Shown piece after piece: positions 47,346 to 53,811 of a DNA stretch of 58,514 bases. The notes beneath the pieces were generated by a model that was given only the letters and a program-made list of their open reading frames with translations, was not told the DNA's origin and made no database searches. Both the position numbers and the translations under genes were made by a program. The first letter of the stretch is position 1; every line of letters begins with the position of its first letter. The stretch comes from Tissierellia bacterium (GTDB taxonomy: Bacteria > Bacillota > Clostridia > Tissierellales > Tepidimicrobiaceae): positions 32,001 to 90,514 of the forward strand of contig JAAYFV010000080.1 in NCBI GenBank assembly GCA_012728075.1. Reading direction: 5' to 3'.

Positions 47346-48998
47346 ATGAGTAGACATAGAAAGAATATAGTTTGCAATAGAATTTTAAAAATGCTATTTA
47401 TAAGTTCAATATTGTTTTTTATATTGATTTTAAGATTATATTATATTCAAATTAGTCAACATAGTGAATTAAAAGCTCAAGTATTGAAACAAAGAGGAGA
47501 AGAGATTAGCCTATACCCCGATAGAGGAATTATATATGATAGAAATCTAATTCCCCTTACCAACAGGGAGATAATCCCTACTGCTTTTGTTTATAAAGAT
47601 AATCTATTAGAAGATAAGGAGTTGATGAATTTTATTATAGAAAACTCTGAATTTGATGAAAAACAATTAAAAGAGTATATTAAAGATAAAAATTCTATAG
47701 TAGCTATTCCCTTAAATTGGGAAATAGAAAGTCCAGATAGAAGCATAATGTTTATTGCTAATAGAATTGTTAGATATGGGAAAAATAATATATTAACTCA
47801 TGTAATTGGCTATATAAACAAAGCAGAGAATAGAGGAGAAGCAGGTATTGAAAAGGTATATGATGAAATTTTAAAAGATGGTGAAAAACATTTTCTTTAT
47901 TTAGAAGTAGATAGAGGGAAAAACAAGACCCTTAATGGAGAATATATGGTATCACAAGATAAAAATATAATGGATCCAAAAGCTGTTAAGTTGACAGTAG
48001 ATTATCACATTCAAAAGATTGTAGAAGAAGTTTTGGATGAAAAAGGTATCCAAGGTGCAGTAATTGTAGCCCATGTAGAATCTGGAGAAATTAGGGCTAT
48101 GGCTAGTAGACCTAATTTTAGCCAATATGAAATTGATGAATATTTAAAAAGAGAGGACATGGCTTTATATAACAAGGCTATTCAAGTAGCCAATCCCCCA
48201 GGTTCTCTTTTTAAAACTGTAGTGTTGTTAGCTGCCTTAGAAAAGGATACTTCTTATTTAAACAAAACCTTTTATTGTAATGGTTACGAGCAAATAAACA
48301 ATGTAACAATAAAATGTAATGAAGGAAGGGGACATGGATATATTGGATTAAAAGATGCTTTTTCAAAATCTTGTAATTCAACTTTTATCCAGTTAGGACA
48401 GGAAATTGGAAGCGAAAGTATTATCCATATGGCAGAGAGATTAGGAATGGGAGAAAGGATAAATATAGGCCTTGTGGAAGAAGTAAAAGGAAATTTACCT
48501 AAAGGAAAAGAGCTTAAAGGGCCAGCAATAGGTAATATTTCCATAGGGCAAGGTAGCATTGAAATTACACCTCTTCAAATAACAAATATGATGTTGATAA
48601 TAGCAAATAAAGGAATAAGAAAGGATATGACTATAGTTGATGGTATAACAACAAAGGATGGATATATGATAAAGGAGTTTAAAAGAAATGATGATGAGAG
48701 GATAATATCCCAAGATATAGCAGAAATTGTACAGGATTTTATGATAGAGGTAGTATTAGAAGGTACAGCAAAAAACATGGATTTAGATTTTGTTGGGGGA
48801 GCAGGAGGAAAAACAGGCTCTGCTCAGGCTGTATTTAAAGGGAAAGAAACTATACACGGCTGGTTTTCAGGATTTTATCCTGCAAAAAATCCCAATTATG
48901 TAATTACAGTATTTGTGGAAAGAGGTTTTTCTGGTTCAGGTGCAGCAGTGCCTATATTTGAGGATATAGCAAAAAGAATTCACCAGATTAACAGATAG
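47346..48998 (+). CDS. Class B penicillin-binding protein (PbpI/SpoVD-like transpeptidase)
   Basis: A 550-residue peptidoglycan transpeptidase. It has an N-terminal membrane helix (about 12-33), a pedestal/dimerisation region (RGIIYDRNLIPLTNRE) and a transpeptidase domain. The serine of SxxK lies in PPGSLFKTV (about residue 287), SxN is in FSKSCNSTF and KTG is in GGKTGSAQA (about 500). There is no PASTA domain. Its position after udk matches B. subtilis yrrR (pbpI). The last 37 codons are duplicated 4,053 bp downstream. Confidence 0.93.
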   Translation: MSRHRKNIVCNRILKMLFISSILFFILILRLYYIQISQHSELKAQVLKQRGEEISLYPDRGIIYDRNLIPLTNREIIPTAFVYKDNLLEDKELMNFIIENSEFDEKQLKEYIKDKNSIVAIPLNWEIESPDRSIMFIANRIVRYGKNNILTHVIGYINKAENRGEAGIEKVYDEILKDGEKHFLYLEVDRGKNKTLNGEYMVSQDKNIMDPKAVKLTVDYHIQKIVEEVLDEKGIQGAVIVAHVESGEIRAMASRPNFSQYEIDEYLKREDMALYNKAIQVANPPGSLFKTVVLLAALEKDTSYLNKTFYCNGYEQINNVTIKCNEGRGHGYIGLKDAFSKSCNSTFIQLGQEIGSESIIHMAERLGMGERINIGLVEEVKGNLPKGKELKGPAIGNISIGQGSIEITPLQITNMMLIIANKGIRKDMTIVDGITTKDGYMIKEFKRNDDERIISQDIAEIVQDFMIEVVLEGTAKNMDLDFVGGAGGKTGSAQAVFKGKETIHGWFSGFYPAKNPNYVITVFVERGFSGSGAAVPIFEDIAKRIHQINR

Positions 48999-49185
48999 GA
49001 CTGGCACCTTCACTATTTGTAACTCATATACTTTAATATGGGGAAAGTGGAGGTGCGTTATGTTTGCGCATCTTTTATTTTCATGGATAAATTGTACAAA
49101 ATCTTTTTTGTTATTTTCAGGTTATGTAGCTAATACTAACTCTTTTCCAAAACCACTTACTAAGGAAGAGGAAGAATATTACCTG
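48886..49185 (+). repeat. 300-bp direct repeat, left copy (PBP 3' end and sigK 5' end)
   Basis: Aligns without gaps to 52939-53238, with six mismatches by eye (about 98%). It contains the PBP C-terminal codons and stop, the intergenic region with the sigK promoter and ribosome site, and the first 42 sigK codons. Four of the five coding mismatches are silent. Confidence 0.97.
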
Positions 49186-49194
49186 GGATCTTGA
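49060..49194 (+). pseudogene. sigK: sigK 5' fragment (left copy)
   Basis: ATG 49060 begins a reading frame identical in protein to the first 42 residues of the intact sigK at 53113, then switches to Gly-Ser-stop at the repeat boundary (49186). It keeps a promoter and a GGAGGTG site, so a 44-residue peptide containing the whole pro-sequence could be made. It is a truncated copy, not a working sigma factor. Confidence 0.93.
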
Positions 49195-49628
49195 CCCTCT
49201 GACAAAGAATTTACTAAATTAGCTATAGCTTTGTCATTATTATCTATACTAGCCTTTATTTCGTCTATTTCAGCCTTTAAACTACTTTGGGTACTAGGTT
49301 TATACTAACTCTATCCTTTTCTATCTTTCTGGACAAGGTAGAGCCTTCATAGGATAGTTTTTTTAGTTCATCTATAACAAGCTGGTCCAGATCATTACCC
49401 TTTATGTTTTTTATATTACATTTTTCTCTTTTGCTTTTTTCTTTCAATTCGCATATATAATAAAAAGTCTGGACTCCATCCTTATTTACACGTCCCATTT
49501 TTGGTCTCATAAAACTACCACAATTACCACCATATTTGCACCCTCACCCAATCACTACCTTTTATTATTCCAGGATGTTTACCTATACCAGTGAATTTAC
49601 TTTTTCTAGAATAAATTGCTATTTTCAT
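49186..49628 (-). pseudogene. Large serine recombinase, decayed remnant
   Basis: On the minus strand, ATG 49628 with GAGGTGAT upstream begins MKIAIYSRKSKFTG, the start of skin/phage-type large serine recombinases including the YSR catalytic serine. After 16 codons the sequence jumps to a later segment (KHPGIIKGSDWVRVQ), so most of the catalytic and recombinase domains are deleted. A stop follows and the frame shifts to the zinc-ribbon region (CGSFMRPKMG, YYICELKEKSKREKC). A second frameshift precedes the coiled coil (IDNNDKAIANLVNSLSEGQDP), which is cut at the repeat boundary. It cannot encode a functional protein. Confidence 0.88.
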
Positions 49629-49687
49629 TGGATCACCTCATTGGTAGTTATATTTTTATTATATTGCAAAAAGGGCAAAAAGAAAAG

Positions 49688-50464
49688 CTACTTGGCAGTA
49701 GCTATTTCTTTATAAGTCCCATTTTTAATATGATATTCTTTGCTATTTTTAATGCAGTAATCAACTACAATATCTGATAAATTATTATAAAACTCTTGGT
49801 ATTCCTTATATTCCCTAACTTTTTTATAGTAATTTAATCTACCAAATATTATTTTGTCTACAAAAGATATTTGTTCTAATATTTTACTAAAATCTTGTTC
49901 AATAATATTAGGTGTAGGATATGGCTCTATGCTTACCCAAGTTTTGTATCCTTTGTTATGTAAGTATTTAAGGCTATTTATTCTTTCGGTATATGGAGCT
50001 GAGTTCGGTTCAAATTTTTTTCTATAATTTTCATCTAATGATATAAGAGTAATGCCATGACTATTAATTTTACTAGTAGTATCTAATGACTTAGGTAAAA
50101 TACCTTTGGTTAATGCAGTACAAGGAATGTCATTGGAATTTAATAAGTTTATTATCTCTATGCTTTTATCACATATCTCCTGATAACCATACATAAAAGG
50201 GGCAGTTGTAAAGCATAAATGGACAGATGTAATCTTATCCTTAAACTTAGGAATCTCTTTTTCTAATAGTTCAATTGCATTGGACACTAATTTAGGGTCC
50301 ATCCATTCATTAATATTTTTAACTCTTCCAAATCTTCTCGCCATCATATAAGCATAACAAGGGTAAAGACAGCCATGAGAGCAGCCTTGAACGTGATTAA
50401 GTGTGAAATCTCCATATTCAACACCTGTTTTATACAACAATGATTTTCTTTCAATGTATTCCAT
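49688..50464 (-). CDS. Radical-SAM-like protein with CX3CX3C motif (partner of TcmP-like protein)
   Basis: A 258-residue protein related to the spore-photoproduct-lyase/radical SAM group. The cysteines sit at about residues 28, 32 and 36 in GCSHGCLYPCYAYMMARRFG, spacing CX3CX3C instead of the classic CX3CX2C. Later barrel-like strands include HLCFTTAPFMYG, GITLISLDENYRKKFEP and TWVSIEPYPTPNI. The start ATG 50464 has GGAGG nine bases upstream; ATG 50473 directly abuts that site. It lies 34 bases downstream of the TcmP-like gene and is likely cotranscribed. The substrate is unknown. Confidence 0.78.
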   Translation of the reverse strand: MEYIERKSLLYKTGVEYGDFTLNHVQGCSHGCLYPCYAYMMARRFGRVKNINEWMDPKLVSNAIELLEKEIPKFKDKITSVHLCFTTAPFMYGYQEICDKSIEIINLLNSNDIPCTALTKGILPKSLDTTSKINSHGITLISLDENYRKKFEPNSAPYTERINSLKYLHNKGYKTWVSIEPYPTPNIIEQDFSKILEQISFVDKIIFGRLNYYKKVREYKEYQEFYNNLSDIVVDYCIKNSKEYHIKNGTYKEIATAK

Positions 50465-50498
50465 ATTATTCATCCTCCAATATATCTCTACAGATATA

Positions 50499-51344
50499 TT
50501 ATATCATTTTTTGTGGGGTTCCACAAACAAATGTTTGCTTTTTGTTTATTATATGATTTGCAATATTATTTGCAAGTCTTTGTGCTTTATTGTCTTTATT
50601 CGATACTGCAAAATATAGCAAAAATAAGGGAGCTTTATTGGAGTTTTTTAAGCATATTGGACAAGAGACAGAAGGAAATACTGTTTCCATTTTATTTTTA
50701 AAATAGCAACAAATATCTTTTTGATCTTTTCGTATTAAATTATTTTCATTGTTTAAAAAGTTCATTTGAGGATTCTCATAATATAACTTTTCTTTCCAAT
50801 CATTATCTCCAAAAAGTCTGTTTAACCTTTCTTCTGTGGGTTCATCTATGTCTCCATCATTTCTTAAGGAACGAGTTGCAGAATTTAGTGGGAATAGGTA
50901 CCATACATCAAAGGCACCAGTTTTTGCAAGAATTTCAAGGGTATTAAACGATAATTCCATGTTATAGGGATCTAAAAAAGCTAATGCTCTAGTGTATTTC
51001 CAATTATAATTATTTACTATATGTATTATCTCGTCATTGCAATCTCCATTTACTATACTTATTTTTTTATGTGGATAATCTTTTTTTAATTGATTTAATG
51101 CTAGATATTTATTTAAATCTTGTTCTATAAAAATATATTGATTAAAACGTGGTAAATCCAATGCTATTTTAGTAGAACCTTCTATTACTCCAACCCTTGT
51201 ATCAAATTCTCCAGTCCCAGCAAATGCATCCAAATAAATTAATTCATATTTAAGTTTTTTGAATGCAGTTGTATATGCTTCCAGATATTTTCTCAGAACA
51301 TCTAATTTAATTATAGTCCAGACTCCACCAAATTTATTATTCAT
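50499..51344 (-). CDS. tcmP: Three-Cys-motif partner protein TcmP-like (class I methyltransferase fold)
   Basis: A 281-residue protein. It has SAM-methyltransferase-like features: motif I YLDAFAGTGEF (about 37-47), an acidic residue after the second strand (IFIEQD, about 74), NGDCND (about 100) and LAFLDPYNMEL (about 121-131), resembling the DPPY-type loop. A C-terminal cysteine cluster (ICCYFKN, SCPICLK) is also seen. I recall TcmP proteins being found beside radical-SAM-like three-cysteine proteins, and that pair is present here. AAAGGAGG lies 11 bases before the ATG. A role in nucleic-acid modification or defence is only inferred. Confidence 0.78.
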   Translation of the reverse strand: MNNKFGGVWTIIKLDVLRKYLEAYTTAFKKLKYELIYLDAFAGTGEFDTRVGVIEGSTKIALDLPRFNQYIFIEQDLNKYLALNQLKKDYPHKKISIVNGDCNDEIIHIVNNYNWKYTRALAFLDPYNMELSFNTLEILAKTGAFDVWYLFPLNSATRSLRNDGDIDEPTEERLNRLFGDNDWKEKLYYENPQMNFLNNENNLIRKDQKDICCYFKNKMETVFPSVSCPICLKNSNKAPLFLLYFAVSNKDNKAQRLANNIANHIINKKQTFVCGTPQKMI

Positions 51345-51425
51345 GTTACTAATGTCCTCCTTTCTATTTAATTTATTTATAAAACATTAATATTAGATGA
51401 GCTAATAAAAGTATATATTACACAA

Positions 51426-51465
51426 AGAACACATGTTTGATATAATATATAAAAACAAACGTTCG
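51426..51465. promoter_or_regulatory. Two LexA-box-like dyads around a -10 box
   Basis: AGAACACATGTTTG (51426-51439) matches the Gram-positive LexA box CGAAC-RNRY-GTTYG at all but the first base. AAAACAAACGTTCG (51452-51465) has one perfect half-site. TATAAT lies between them at 51441-51446. SOS control of the plus-strand small ORF, and perhaps of the divergent tcmP gene, is inferred. Confidence 0.5.
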
Positions 51466-51494
51466 CCACTGAATACATTACAAAGGGGGTCCTG

Positions 51495-51614
51495 GTGGTG
51501 GTGGAGGATATAGACTACATAAAAAAATTAATCTTAGAAATATTAATAAATTTTACAGAGGAAAAAATGAAAGAAGCAATAAAACATATAATTGATAACA
51601 AAAAAGGCAATTGA
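51495..51614 (+). CDS. Small 39-residue ORF of the island
   Basis: GTG 51495 (further in-frame GTGs at 51498 and 51501) after AAAGGGGG encodes a short peptide with an amphipathic helix (YIKKLILEILINF) and a charged C-terminal helix (MKEAIKHIIDNKKG). It lies directly downstream of a -10 box flanked by LexA-like dyads. I do not recognise the peptide. A toxin-like, regulatory or remnant nature is possible. Confidence 0.45.
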   Translation: MVVEDIDYIKKLILEILINFTEEKMKEAIKHIIDNKKGN

Positions 51615-51638
51615 CCGATAAGTTAGTTGCCTCTTTTC
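51602..51638. terminator. Possible bidirectional terminator in the island
   Basis: GGCAA (51606-51610) pairs with TTGCC (51627-51631), with an A-rich flank on the left and CTCTTTT on the right. It lies between convergent small genes. The stem is short, so confidence is low. Confidence 0.4.
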
Positions 51639-51655
51639 CTGTATAGTAGCATAAT

Positions 51656-51931
51656 TTATTTAACAATTTTTTTCTTTAGATTAAATATTTCTTTTTCAGT
51701 TTGGAATTCTTTATGGGTAAGGAAGTCTAGATCATCTGATATTTTATCTAATTTAGTATTTGTAGCAATATGATTAGCAGCATTTTTAGTATCTAATTCG
51801 TGGATTTGTTCTTTAATCTCCTGGAGTTTATTTAAAACTTCCACATGATTATCATCTACCTTTTTTTCTAAACTACTAATTTGGCTTTGTACTTGATTTA
51901 ATAAATCTAATATCTTTTCTTCATTATTCAT
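51656..51931 (-). CDS. Coiled-coil protein of the island
   Basis: A 91-residue, almost entirely helical heptad protein (LLNQVQSQISSLEKKVDDN, LNKLQEIKEQIHELDTKN) with a basic end. Such short coiled-coil proteins often follow XRE repressors in phage-derived islands. The ATG has AAAGGAG upstream and follows the repressor stop by 13 bases, so the two are cotranscribed. Function unknown. Confidence 0.7.
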   Translation of the reverse strand: MNNEEKILDLLNQVQSQISSLEKKVDDNHVEVLNKLQEIKEQIHELDTKNAANHIATNTKLDKISDDLDFLTHKEFQTEKEIFNLKKKIVK

Positions 51932-51944
51932 GATTTCAACTCCT

Positions 51945-52322
51945 TTATTCTTTTTTCATCTTTTTCTTAAATTCTAATAATAACTTATAAGTCTCAATCA
52001 ATTCCTGTGGAGAGGTTTCGTCAAATTCTAGTTCCTCTTTTTCCATCTCTTCTTTTAATTCAAGAAGAAATTTATCTACTTTATCTAAATCTTTATCGTT
52101 GGTATATGGATTTCTTTCTTCAGTTCTTCCTAGAAGGAAGTCAACTGATACATTGAAGTAGTCTGCTATTTTCTTTTTTATATCGTCTCCTGGGACTCTA
52201 TTACCAGCTTCATATTGAGAAAGGGTTGAATTGCTTATATTTAATATTTTAGCAAGTTCTAATTGGGACAATTCTTTTTCTTTTCTTAAAAGTTTGATTT
52301 TTTTTCCTAATTCGTTATTCAT
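51945..52322 (-). CDS. XRE-family repressor
   Basis: A 125-residue regulator. The N-terminal helix-turn-helix (about 7-60) is GKKIKLLRKEKELSQLELAKILNISNSTLSQYEAGNRVP, split here as GKKIKLLRKEKELSQ then LELAKILNISNSTLSQYEAG, followed by VDFLLGRTEERN and an acidic helical C-terminus. ATG 52322 follows AAAGGTGG; the in-frame GTG 52331 overlaps that site. It is divergent from the plus-strand ORF at 52485, the layout of an element immunity repressor. Confidence 0.88.
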   Translation of the reverse strand: MNNELGKKIKLLRKEKELSQLELAKILNISNSTLSQYEAGNRVPGDDIKKKIADYFNVSVDFLLGRTEERNPYTNDKDLDKVDKFLLELKEEMEKEELEFDETSPQELIETYKLLLEFKKKMKKE

Positions 52323-52412
52323 GATTACCACCTTTCACAATATGTAAATTAATTATATTATATCAAAAAAATAAATTTTAAAATATCTTTTTACAAAATG
52401 TCAAAACAATTG

Positions 52413-52461
52413 TTGACTTTTACATTAAGCAAATACCTAATGAAAATGGATTTACATTTAG
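52413..52461. promoter_or_regulatory. Divergent control region of the XRE repressor
   Basis: A plus-strand -35 box TTGACT (52413-52418) is followed by direct repeats TTTACATTAAG (52419-52429) and TTTACATTTAG (52451-52461), 32 bp or about three helical turns apart. They are candidate repressor half-sites before the ORF at 52485. Confidence 0.4.
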
Positions 52462-52484
52462 TAAAATAATAGGAGGTGCAGGAG

Positions 52485-52892: not shown

Positions 52893-52938
52893 AAAATATT
52901 AATATTAAATAAGAACCCTAACAAGGCTCTTTTTTCAT

Positions 52939-53051
52939 AAAATCCTAATTATGTAATTACAGTATTTGTGGAAGGAGGTTTTTCTGGTTCAGGTGCAGCA
53001 GTGCCTATATTTGAGGATATAGCAAAAAGAATTCATCAGATTAACAGATAG
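52939..53051 (+). pseudogene. PBP 3' fragment (right copy)
   Basis: In frame with the PBP C-terminus (NYVITVFVE to the TAG at 53049-53051). It has one amino-acid change (Arg to Gly) and otherwise silent differences. No start codon or promoter; non-functional duplicate. Confidence 0.93.
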
Positions 53052-53077
53052 GACTGGCACCTTCACTATTTGTAACT

Positions 53078-53085
53078 CATATACT
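53078..53085 (+). promoter_or_regulatory. Candidate mother-cell promoter -10 box of sigK
   Basis: CATATACT resembles the -10 of sigma-E/sigma-K promoters and lies 35 bases before the sigK ATG, with GGAGGTG between. The same box occurs in the left repeat at 49025-49032. Assignment is by resemblance only. Confidence 0.45.
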
Positions 53086-53112
53086 TTAATATGGGGAAAG
53101 TGGAGGTGCTTT

Positions 53113-53811
53113 ATGTTTGCTCATCTTTTATTTTCATGGATAAATTGTACAAAATCTTTTTTGTTATTTTCAGGTTATGTAGCTAATACTAATTCTTTTC
53201 CAAAACCACTTACTAAGGAAGAGGAAGAATATTACCTGAAATTATATTCAGAAGGGGATGAGAAAGCTCGTAATATATTAATTGAAAGGAATTTGAGATT
53301 GGTAGCTCATATAGTAAAAAAATACCATAATATTGGAAAGGATATAGATGATTTAATTTCTATAGGTACAATAGGACTAATAAAAGCCATATCAACTTTT
53401 GATATGGAGAAGGGTACAAGATTAGCTACTTATGCGGCCCGTTGTATTGAGAATGAAATTCTCATGACTATAAGATCAAATAAAAAATCTAAATCAGAAG
53501 TATCCCTTCAAGAGCCCATAGGAGTTGATAAAGAAGGAAATGAGATATCTTTATTAGATATATTAGGGACAGATGTGGATAATGTAATAGACGAAGTTCA
53601 TTTAAAATTTATGAAAAAAAAGTTATATAAATCTGTAAATAAAGTTTTAAAAGATAGGGAAAAGATTATAATAGAATTAAGATATGGATTAATAGATGGT
53701 GTATGTAAAACCCAGAGGGAAATAGCTAATATGCTAGGCATATCTAGATCTTATGTATCTAGAATTGAAAAGAGGGCAATTGAAAAATTATATAAGGCTT
53801 TAAATAACTAA
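53113..53811 (+). CDS. sigK: RNA polymerase sporulation sigma factor sigma-K (intact)
   Basis: A 232-residue late mother-cell sigma factor. The hydrophobic pro-sequence ([22 protein letters not shown], best seen in residues 2-20) suggests SpoIVFB-type processing. Region 2 shows [14 protein letters not shown] and [17 protein letters not shown], and region 4 shows [15 protein letters not shown] and the helix-turn-helix [18 protein letters not shown]. The gene is uninterrupted, unlike the split sigK of skin-bearing species. It nevertheless sits next to recombinase remnants and a second copy of its own 5' end. A terminator follows. Confidence 0.96.

What the first reader, a model, noticed from the sequence alone, without database searches (positions are those of the whole stretch)
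49688..51344. TcmP-like protein plus radical-SAM-like CX3CX3C protein: candidate undescribed modification or defence module
A two-gene minus-strand unit is the only sizeable cargo of the island. One protein has a methyltransferase-like fold (DAFAGTG, FLDPY). The other resembles radical SAM/photoproduct-lyase proteins but has an extra residue in the cysteine motif (GCSHGCLYPC). Both ORFs are intact while the neighbouring recombinase is decayed, which suggests selection for the cargo. Mobile location and pairing fit DNA/RNA modification or anti-phage defence, but no function is shown.
Basis: partly seen in the sequence, partly recalled or inferred. Interest (0 to 1): 0.8.

Follow-up and report, generated by a model that had tools for sequence, protein, structure and literature searches.

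The report
Methyltransferase-like and radical-SAM pair, mobile cargo
A two-gene cassette, one methyltransferase-like protein and one radical-chemistry enzyme with an unusual three-cysteine signature, rides in a decaying mobile element next to a sporulation gene; relatives of the pair often sit inside bacterial restriction (anti-phage) operons, so it probably modifies nucleic acids in the phage arms race, although this particular copy may be inactive.

Summary
Window 50499-51344(-) is a TcmP protein (TIGR04474, 172 bits, cut-off 53); 49688-50473(-) is a radical-SAM protein with CX3CX3C. The extra residue is a family trait: 45 of 45 non-redundant relatives keep GCxHGCxxPC, and 38 of 45 have TcmP directly upstream. 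No Pfam, NCBIfam or PHROGs model names this radical-SAM family beyond the superfamily; PADLOC candidate PDC-M41 matches the TcmP but barely the partner. At least 24 of 45 relatives have restriction-modification genes in the fetched flanks; in a random genome sample it is 3 of 14 (P about 0.002). The TcmP tree needs six switches between this partner and DUF5131. Predicted folds: methyltransferase, nearest RlmJ, and spore-photoproduct-lyase-like enzyme. Most likely: a two-enzyme nucleic-acid modification accessory of restriction and phage loci. The island is a decayed sigK-intervening element whose cargo slot holds other genes in a sister species. Against the 'selected cargo' argument: this copy alone of 34 carries Ala at an otherwise invariant Asp. 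Function, substrate and defence are unshown.

The parts
49688..50473 (-). Radical-SAM protein, 261 aa, CX3CX3C family (called rS3 here)
   Evidence: Pfam PF04055 40.9 bits over cut-off 29.5; 45/45 non-redundant relatives share the motif; model pLDDT 91.6, best structural match spore photoproduct lyase Z 19.5
50357..50383 (-). Cys motif CSHGCLYPC, residues 31-39
   Evidence: translation; C31, C35, P38, C39 invariant in 34 sequences
50201..50203 (-). Codon of residue 91, Ala here, Asp in the other 33 of 34 aligned family members
50499..51344 (-). TcmP protein, 281 aa, methyltransferase fold nearest RlmJ
   Evidence: TIGR04474 172 bits; PADLOC PDC-M41A 260 bits; model pLDDT 90.6, VIA-align top RlmJ/DUF519 Z 15.2-16.1 and Trm1 15.5
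49677..51457 (.). Cargo slot: no blastn counterpart in the sister element of G001, which holds two other ORFs (190 and 160 aa) there
   Evidence: blastn map; ORFs of L183
49183..49676 (-). Decayed large serine recombinase, pieces only (Zn-ribbon ORF 49277-49510)
   Evidence: Pfam Zn_ribbon_recom 27.8 bits, cut-off 25.3; 90-96% DNA identity to the intact recombinase of L183
51656..51931 (-). 91-aa ORF of the element, no clear family
   Evidence: same ORF in the sigK element of G001; 94% DNA identity over 51458-52481
51945..52331 (-). Cro/C1-type repressor of the element
   Evidence: Pfam HTH_3 54.6 bits; same gene in L183
48883..49185 (+). Left copy of a 303-bp repeat: 3' end of a penicillin-binding-protein-like gene plus the first codons of sigK
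   Evidence: 296/303 identical to 52936-53238; upstream gene 47346-48998 best NCBIfam pbp2_mrdA 297 bits, under its cut-off 455
52936..53238 (+). Right copy of the repeat, leading into intact sigK
53113..53811 (+). Uninterrupted sigK, 232 aa
   Evidence: TIGR02846 spore_sigmaK 361 bits, cut-off 298.65; 84-86% identical full-length copies in G008, G010, G011, split in G001 and G012

Best explanation
The pair encodes a two-enzyme nucleic-acid modification module that serves as an exchangeable accessory of restriction-modification and phage loci. TcmP, an RlmJ-like class I methyltransferase, binds SAM and the target base and probably methylates or at least presents it. The radical-SAM partner, on a spore-photoproduct-lyase-like barrel with a widened Cys loop (CX3CX3C), then makes a 5'-deoxyadenosyl radical and changes a carbon of that base or of the added methyl group. 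TcmP varies widely and the radical-SAM enzyme little, so TcmP probably sets the target. DNA is the favoured substrate because the pair is often embedded in DNA restriction operons and lies near phage packaging genes. Here it is cargo of a decayed sigK-intervening element. Shown by computation: families, pairing, neighbourhoods, folds as predicted, partner swapping. Inferred: SAM chemistry, order of steps, DNA target, benefit against phage. The window copy itself may be inactive.
For: Pairing: 38/45 non-redundant relatives have TcmP directly upstream, 11 of the 38 overlapping by 4 bases. Restriction neighbours in at least 24/45: type III Mod/Res, type I, GmrSD with REase, HindIII-like, McrBC, Eco57I-like; two arrangements with type III, Mod-TcmP-rS3-Res in L014 and L015 and TcmP-rS3-Mod-Res in L016, L017, L019, L020, L022. 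Random genome sample: 3/14, P 0.002. Phage terminase genes near the pair in L086, L088, L090, L097. Fold: spore photoproduct lyase first in Foldseek and Z 19.5 against 15.6 for the next family in VIA-align; RlmJ/DUF519 first for TcmP in VIA-align (Z 15.2-16.1, Trm1 15.5). TcmP D125-P126 and W148 align with RlmJ D164-P165 and W195; RlmJ D164 and K18 are essential and W195 is placed to stack the base (PMC3814359, passages); a Lys in helix 1 is invariant in TcmP. Conserved radical-SAM partner (53-80% identity to the window) against divergent TcmP (14-58%); six partner changes on the tree.
Against: No activity, substrate or protection has been measured here or found in the library searched. Foldseek puts EgtD and other small-molecule and cap methyltransferases first for TcmP, with no RlmJ among its first 50 rows; only VIA-align ranks RlmJ on top. 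hhalign to RlmJ is weak (prob 48.5, E 1.8e-4) and does not reach Lys13; TcmP has DP[YFA] and not DPPY, so methyl transfer may be lost. In 21 of 45 loci I found no restriction gene, and the loci were not drawn at random. Most restriction loci near it own a methylase already, so another modification is not needed for self-protection. The window copy has Ala at the family-invariant Asp91 and no restriction gene in the island.
Confidence: 0.43

Rival explanations
1. Demodifier or repair module: the radical-SAM enzyme, like spore photoproduct lyase, reverses a base modification or lesion, for example stripping phage DNA hypermodification so that the linked restriction enzymes can cut; TcmP finds the base.
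For: Closest solved fold is a DNA repair enzyme. Association is with restriction systems of many kinds that mostly own methylases, which suits a generic helper of restriction.
Against: Phages carry the pair near their terminase genes, where removing protective modification would hurt them. The spore photoproduct lyase model PF20903 is not among the Pfam hits at E up to 1. TcmP keeps methyltransferase catalytic-type residues.
Confidence: 0.2
2. RNA-targeting module: the pair modifies tRNA or rRNA (TcmP is closest to an rRNA and a tRNA methyltransferase in VIA-align) and acts by protecting or shutting down translation during infection.
For: Best VIA-align matches of TcmP are RlmJ and Trm1, both RNA enzymes. 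RlmN and Cfr, radical-SAM enzymes that modify RNA, appear among the structural matches of rS3, though well below spore photoproduct lyase.
Against: Neighbourhoods are DNA restriction operons. The RlmJ active site is itself stated to be more like DNA m6A methyltransferases (PMC3814359 abstract).
Confidence: 0.15
3. The window copy is a dead passenger (compatible with any family function): the cassette arrived with a sigK element, lost function by the Asp91 change and persists only because decay is recent.
For: Ala at a position that is Asp in 56 of 57 aligned proteins of four families; recombinase and right end of the element already broken although the remains are 90-96% identical to the intact sister element.
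Against: Both reading frames are open. dN is low for rS3 against L084 (0.13, dS 4.1, saturated; for TcmP dN 0.31, dS not computable), which reflects history and not the last steps. One base in a draft assembly of 229 contigs could be an error. Eleven other members of the 34 also show one or more private changes at otherwise invariant positions.
Confidence: 0.45
4. Not a nucleic-acid system: a small metabolic or peptide-modifying radical-SAM pair carried by chance on mobile elements.
For: SuiB and other peptide-modifying radical-SAM enzymes are among the Foldseek matches. No substrate is known.
Against: No precursor-like gene was noticed to recur beside the pair, but ORFs under 60 aa were not listed, so a small peptide could be missed. 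Restriction genes recur instead.
Confidence: 0.1

Closest known systems
TcmP, NCBIfam TIGR04474 (three-Cys-motif partner protein)
   Same: Window TcmP scores 172 bits over a cut-off of 53 and covers model positions 2-260 of 263.
   Different: The family is named for partnering the three-Cys family PF07505/DUF5131 (recalled from its description); here the partner is another radical-SAM family.
PADLOC candidate PDC-M41
   Same: TcmP matches PDC-M41A at 260 bits. That B is DUF5131-like and that the system is untested is inferred or recalled.
   Different: The partner reaches only 19 bits over 45 residues of the PDC-M41B model.
DUF5131 / PF07505 (Gp37/Gp68)
   Same: Distant homology to rS3: hhalign prob 80.9, E 1.2e-5 over 201 columns, Cys motifs and the Asp aligned; both partner TcmP.
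   Different: CX6CX2C (13 of 13 aligned) against CX3CX3C; window protein below the Pfam cut-off (18.4 against 28.9).
PA0069 / TIGR04470-like radical-SAM proteins
   Same: Closest canonical relatives: hhalign prob 98.7, E 2.4e-16 over 242 columns; NCBIfam hits 44 and 34 bits.
   Different: CX3CX2C in the five aligned; window protein far under the NCBIfam cut-offs of 360 and 410; whether these have a TcmP partner was not examined.
Spore photoproduct lyase
   Same: Best structural match, Z 19.5 over 235 residues.
   Different: CX3CX2C in the five aligned; 13-14% identity; PF20903 not among Pfam hits at E up to 1.
RlmJ (23S rRNA m6A2030 methyltransferase)
   Same: VIA-align Z about 15.8; catalytic Asp and base-stacking Trp aligned.
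   Different: DPY/DPF/DPA in place of DPPY; weak profile similarity; not in Foldseek's first 50.
skin (sigK-intervening) elements
   Same: Recombinase pieces, repressor and 91-aa ORF are those of the element that splits sigK in sister genome G001.
   Different: sigK is whole here, beside a 303-bp repeat; the recombinase is broken; different cargo.

Membership tests
TcmP (TIGR04474) | Profile score over the curated cut-off across the model | tested here: met
   172.1 bits against 53, model positions 2-260 of 263
TcmP (TIGR04474) | Adjacent three-Cys-motif partner of family PF07505 | tested here: not met
   Partner is below the PF07505 cut-off, 18.4 against 28.9; it is a different three-Cys radical-SAM family
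Radical-SAM superfamily | Pfam PF04055 over cut-off and barrel fold | tested here: met
   40.9 bits against 29.5; top structural matches are radical-SAM enzymes
Radical-SAM superfamily | Canonical CX3CX2C motif | tested here: not met
   CX3CX3C in the window and in 45 of 45 relatives; other three-Cys motifs are said to support the chemistry too (PMC3742179 passage)
Radical-SAM superfamily | [4Fe-4S] cluster and SAM cleavage | not testable with these tools
   needs protein
DUF5131 | Score over PF07505 cut-off and CX6CX2C | tested here: not met
Spore photoproduct lyase | PF20903 match | tested here: not met
   not among Pfam hits at E up to 1
PADLOC PDC-M41 | A and B components by profile | tested here: inconclusive
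   A 260 bits; B 19 bits over 45 of 241 positions, no cut-off given
Restriction-modification system | Nuclease with cognate modification methylase at the locus | tested here: not met
   None among the seven island-region ORFs scanned with Pfam and NCBIfam (three with PADLOC); relatives have them in at least 24 of 45
Anti-phage defence system | Protection against phage | not testable with these tools
   needs challenge experiment
skin element | Recombinase-bearing element inserted in sigK | tested here: met
   pieces 90-96% identical to the element splitting sigK in G001; neighbour gene is sigK by TIGR02846
skin element | sigK interrupted and restored by excision | tested here: not met
   sigK 53113-53811 is whole; recombinase broken
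RlmJ-type methyltransferase | D/NPPY motif IV | tested here: not met
   DP[YFA]x in all 32 aligned TcmPs

The most novel reading that the evidence does not exclude
A so far unnamed family of CX3CX3C radical-SAM enzymes, partnered by swappable TcmP methyltransferase-like subunits, installs a carbon-centred DNA modification made in two steps (methyltransfer, then radical chemistry) and works as a plug-in for restriction systems of all types and as a counter-measure in phages: a mode of nucleic-acid marking not yet known in immunity.
Probability: 0.28. Interest if true: 0.85.

Novelty: new variant of a known kind. Interest (0 to 1): 0.57.

Why it matters
Radical-SAM chemistry on nucleic acids inside restriction operons would mean that bacteria and phages mark DNA in ways that standard methylome methods may miss. 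The pair is compact, is found in records titled Bacillota, Nitrospirota and Candidatus Schekmaniibacteriota (L013, the Schekmaniibacteriota record, has the radical-SAM gene in a type III operon but no TcmP beside it), and comes with type III genes in named isolates such as Acutalibacter sp. 1XD8-33, so the question is directly testable. The repeated exchange of TcmP between two three-Cys partners also suggests that the large unexplained family DUF5131 and this family do equivalent jobs, so solving one would help to explain both.

Tried and rejected
Housekeeping reading: rejected; apart from Radical_SAM and TcmP no curated model over its cut-off for the two proteins. Membership in DUF5131 or spore photoproduct lyase: rejected by Pfam scores. 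Sequence match to solved structures: none with E under 0.2, single proteins or profiles. Plasmids: only 5 of 72,556 records match the radical-SAM protein, all under 29% identity and none over 80% of its length; of ten matching phage records two are close. Of 60 genomes nearest to the window's, none had a match over 37% identity, and the best by E-value is 33% identical and CX3CX2C. Idea that the pair replaces a missing methylase in GmrSD/REase loci: dropped, a D12-class N6 methylase sits downstream in L096. Extra PADLOC hits in A6 (sigma-54-type activator model in L078, mad3 model in L018): not counted, they look like generic ATPases; HEC-07 beside the pair in L099 and a ThsB-like TIR gene upstream in L084 were not counted as restriction. 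DUF5131 loci as a negative control for restriction linkage: 0 of 15 matched my query set, but the queries came from rS3 loci, and an open PADLOC scan of 57 neighbour proteins there did find restriction, AbiE and other defence models, so it is not a clean control. Literature: no paper holds TcmP with radical SAM; three papers hold 'three-Cys-motif partner', one 'Gp37Gp68', none useful for function; further searches. The library lacks most subscription journals.

Papers: PMC12445080 and PMC12429752 one passage each; PMC10853773 two passages; PMC3814359 abstract and passages; PMC10608323 passages, of no use; PMC3742179 passages; all others only as search listings with the start of the abstract.
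Full report
What is there. The second is TcmP: 172 bits against TIGR04474 with a cut-off of 53, and 260 bits against PADLOC PDC-M41A. The first passes Pfam's Radical_SAM cut-off (40.9 against 29.5) but no narrower one: DUF5131 18.4 bits (cut-off 28.9), PA0069 44 (360), TIGR04470 34 (410); PHROG 13321, of unknown function, 64 bits.

The odd motif is a family trait. A scan of genome contigs gave nine relatives at 58-67% identity; of ten matching phage records two are close (58-63%); IMG/VR gave 31 loci, 30 of this kind and one CX3CX2C outlier, L114; and in a sample of 398 genomes of the phylum 14 had a hit at E up to 1e-30, the window's own included. No plasmid record held a close relative. After removing duplicates 45 proteins besides the window remain. 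All 45 have GCxHGCxxPC, that is C-X3-C-X3-C with a Pro before the third Cys. I call the family rS3. hhalign places it nearest the canonical SPL-like radical-SAM proteins (E 2.4e-16), then DUF5131 (E 1.2e-5) and spore photoproduct lyase (E 5.6e-5); in all three alignments rS3 carries one residue more before the third Cys.

The pair. In 38 of 45 loci TcmP lies directly upstream on the same strand, 11 of them with a 4-base overlap. Of the other seven, L104 and L133 are cut by contig ends; in L111 the called ORFs overlap too far for my gap rule, though TcmP is there; in L130 an IscB-like N-terminus is fused to rS3, and a truncated TcmP followed by the same IscB-like start lies at the end of another contig of that genome (L079). 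L013, L131 and L132 show none. In L093, L106, L108 and L110 two different TcmPs stand in tandem before one rS3.

Partner exchange. The sample of 398 phylum genomes had TcmP in 33 (30 over cut-off) and DUF5131 in 75 (63 over cut-off). Of 64 distinct TcmP proteins of at least 250 aa in the fetched loci, 46 have rS3 beside them, 13 DUF5131 and 5 neither; some of the five are cut by contig ends, and in L056 (G448) a canonical radical-SAM ORF faces TcmP instead. On a 62-row TcmP tree the rS3/DUF5131 label needs six changes (well supported branches alone force five for DUF5131), and the window TcmP falls in a 100/100 clade of 14 rows, eight with rS3 and six with DUF5131. rS3 is conserved (53-80% identity to the window protein), TcmP is not (14-58%). 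I read this as a constant enzyme with a variable, exchangeable, probably target-setting subunit. That reading is an inference.

Neighbourhoods. At least 24 of 45 non-redundant rS3 loci have restriction-modification genes in the fetched flanks (recounted). L106 has Mod and Res that PADLOC names type III (560 and 39 bits), and nine more match them by BLASTP (L016, L019, L022, L072, L093, L098, L103, L104, L108). L013-L015 match the ResIII and N6_N4 methylase genes of L076. Others are type I (L075; L094), L076 itself, GmrSD with a type II-like nuclease (L096, L107), C5 methylase plus McrBC (L100), HindIII-like nuclease plus methylase (L102, L105), ResIII (L109) and Eco57I/N6 methylases (L111, L112). 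Not every flank gene was scanned, so 24 is a lower bound; the set is not random and one type III arrangement is over-represented. Among the 26 non-redundant IMG/VR loci it is 15. In the random sample 3 of 14 rS3 genomes (G137, G203, G373) have an N6/N4-type methylase within 5 kb, where 0.27 is expected from the density of such genes in the same genomes; P is 0.002. In L014 and L015 the order is Mod-TcmP-rS3-Res, in L016, L017, L019, L020 and L022 TcmP-rS3-Mod-Res, so the linkage with type III has two arrangements. In L086, L088, L090 and L097 phage terminase genes lie near the pair, within 3 kb. A long HExxH protein, ImmA/IrrE-like by motif only, recurs on the other strand upstream; no NCBIfam model and only a sub-threshold HTH hit in Pfam were found for the one from L107.

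Predicted structures. rS3 (window sequence, 34-row alignment) models at pLDDT 91.6; the best solved matches are spore photoproduct lyases, first in Foldseek (E 4e-7) and at Z 19.2-19.5 over 235-237 residues in VIA-align, then pyruvate formate-lyase activating enzyme at 15.6. TcmP models at pLDDT 90.6. VIA-align ranks RlmJ/DUF519 at 15.2-16.1 and Trm1 at 15.5, about one to two units above many other methyltransferases; Foldseek, however, puts EgtD, a cap methyltransferase and others first and shows no RlmJ in its first 50 rows. So 'methyltransferase fold' is firm and 'RlmJ-like' is a preference. K13, Y20, D39, G45, D125 and P126 are invariant in 32 TcmPs (G45 is not invariant in the second set of 12). 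hhalign of the short TcmP clade to E. coli RlmJ (weak, prob 48.5) aligns D125-P126 with D164-P165 and W148 with W195. In RlmJ, D164 and K18 are essential and W195 is placed to stack the base (PMC3814359, passages). TcmP has DP[YFA] where RlmJ has DPPY, so loss or change of methyl transfer is possible.

The island. The gene behind it is sigK (TIGR02846, 361 bits, cut-off 299). In the same-genus genome G001, sigK is split by a 6.2-kb element that holds an intact 544-aa serine recombinase, two ORFs of 190 and 160 aa, the same 91-aa ORF and the same repressor. Window 51458-52481 is 94% identical to it and the recombinase pieces 90-96%, while the flanking penicillin-binding-protein-like and sigK genes are only 79-85% identical. 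So the element itself appears to have moved between species, or was acquired late. The TcmP/rS3 pair occupies 49677-51457, the place where G001 has its two other ORFs: an exchangeable cargo slot. The nearest rS3 relatives also come with serine recombinases in IMG/VR contigs: L113 directly behind rS3 (integrase PHROG), L084 directly behind (Ccr-type recombinase models 94 bits, under cut-off, partial) and L085 3.6 kb behind (221 bits, under cut-off). In the window sigK is whole, and a 303-bp repeat (296 identical) of the end of the upstream gene and the start of sigK flanks the remnant. My guess is that sigK was rebuilt by recombination, which removed the need for excision and let the recombinase decay.

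Is this copy alive? The frames are open and dN is low against L084 (0.13 for rS3, 0.31 for TcmP; dS saturated or not computable). But residue 91 is Ala, against Asp in the 33 other rS3 proteins; the matching column is Asp in 13/13 DUF5131, 5/5 spore photoproduct lyases and 5/5 canonical relatives. A dead or crippled enzyme, or an assembly error, are both possible. Eleven other family members show private changes at otherwise invariant positions as well, so this alone does not prove decay.

Verdict. Ordinary as a mobile cassette, unusual as chemistry: a defined radical-SAM family with its own cysteine spacing, tied to TcmP and often to restriction operons, with no function known. It is best filed as a new variant beside the TcmP/DUF5131 candidate.

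Noticed in passing
window 48883-49185 and 52936-53238: A 303-bp direct repeat, 296 identical, of the end of a penicillin-binding-protein-like gene and the start of sigK flanks the remnant; sigK behind it is whole.
   Followed up: partly
L183 2881-4385 (G001): The intact sigK element of the sister species carries two ORFs (190 and 160 aa, no Pfam family at E up to 0.001) in the slot that holds TcmP/rS3 in the window; skin elements of this family may be a platform for swappable cargo.
   Followed up: partly
window 49183-52481 against L183: Element DNA is 90-96% identical between the two species while flanking genes are 79-85%, which suggests transfer of the element between species.
   Followed up: partly
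G001, G012 (L183, L184); perhaps G002, G005: sigK is split by elements of 6.2 and about 2.6 kb; in G002 and G005 it breaks at a contig end.
   Followed up: partly
L107 3529-5466, L098 3516-5501, L103 3507-5378 and others: A recurrent divergent gene of about 620-660 aa with HExxH upstream of TcmP/rS3 cassettes; ImmA/IrrE-like by motif only.
   Followed up: partly
L093, L106, L108, L110: Two TcmPs of different subfamilies in tandem before a single rS3 gene.
   Followed up: no
L080, L095: TcmP is in two pieces while the adjacent rS3 frame is open.
   Followed up: no
L131, L132 (G402, G238): rS3 relatives with no TcmP nearby and among the lowest profile scores of the family (339-340).
   Followed up: no
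L130 4921-6693 and L079 5650-6571 (G237): The N-terminal half of an IscB-type protein (about 151 bits, under the cut-off 175) is fused to rS3 in one contig, and the same start follows a truncated TcmP at another contig's end: probably an insertion in the pair.
   Followed up: partly
G000:C64:8628-8801: The window's genome shows only a C-terminal fragment of spore photoproduct lyase, near full length in five of the 21 genomes searched.
   Followed up: no
Sinorhizobium meliloti SMa2243 (PMC12445080, passage): A TcmP gene is listed next to the phage-defence gene hna (SMa2245) in a table of regulated genes.
   Followed up: no
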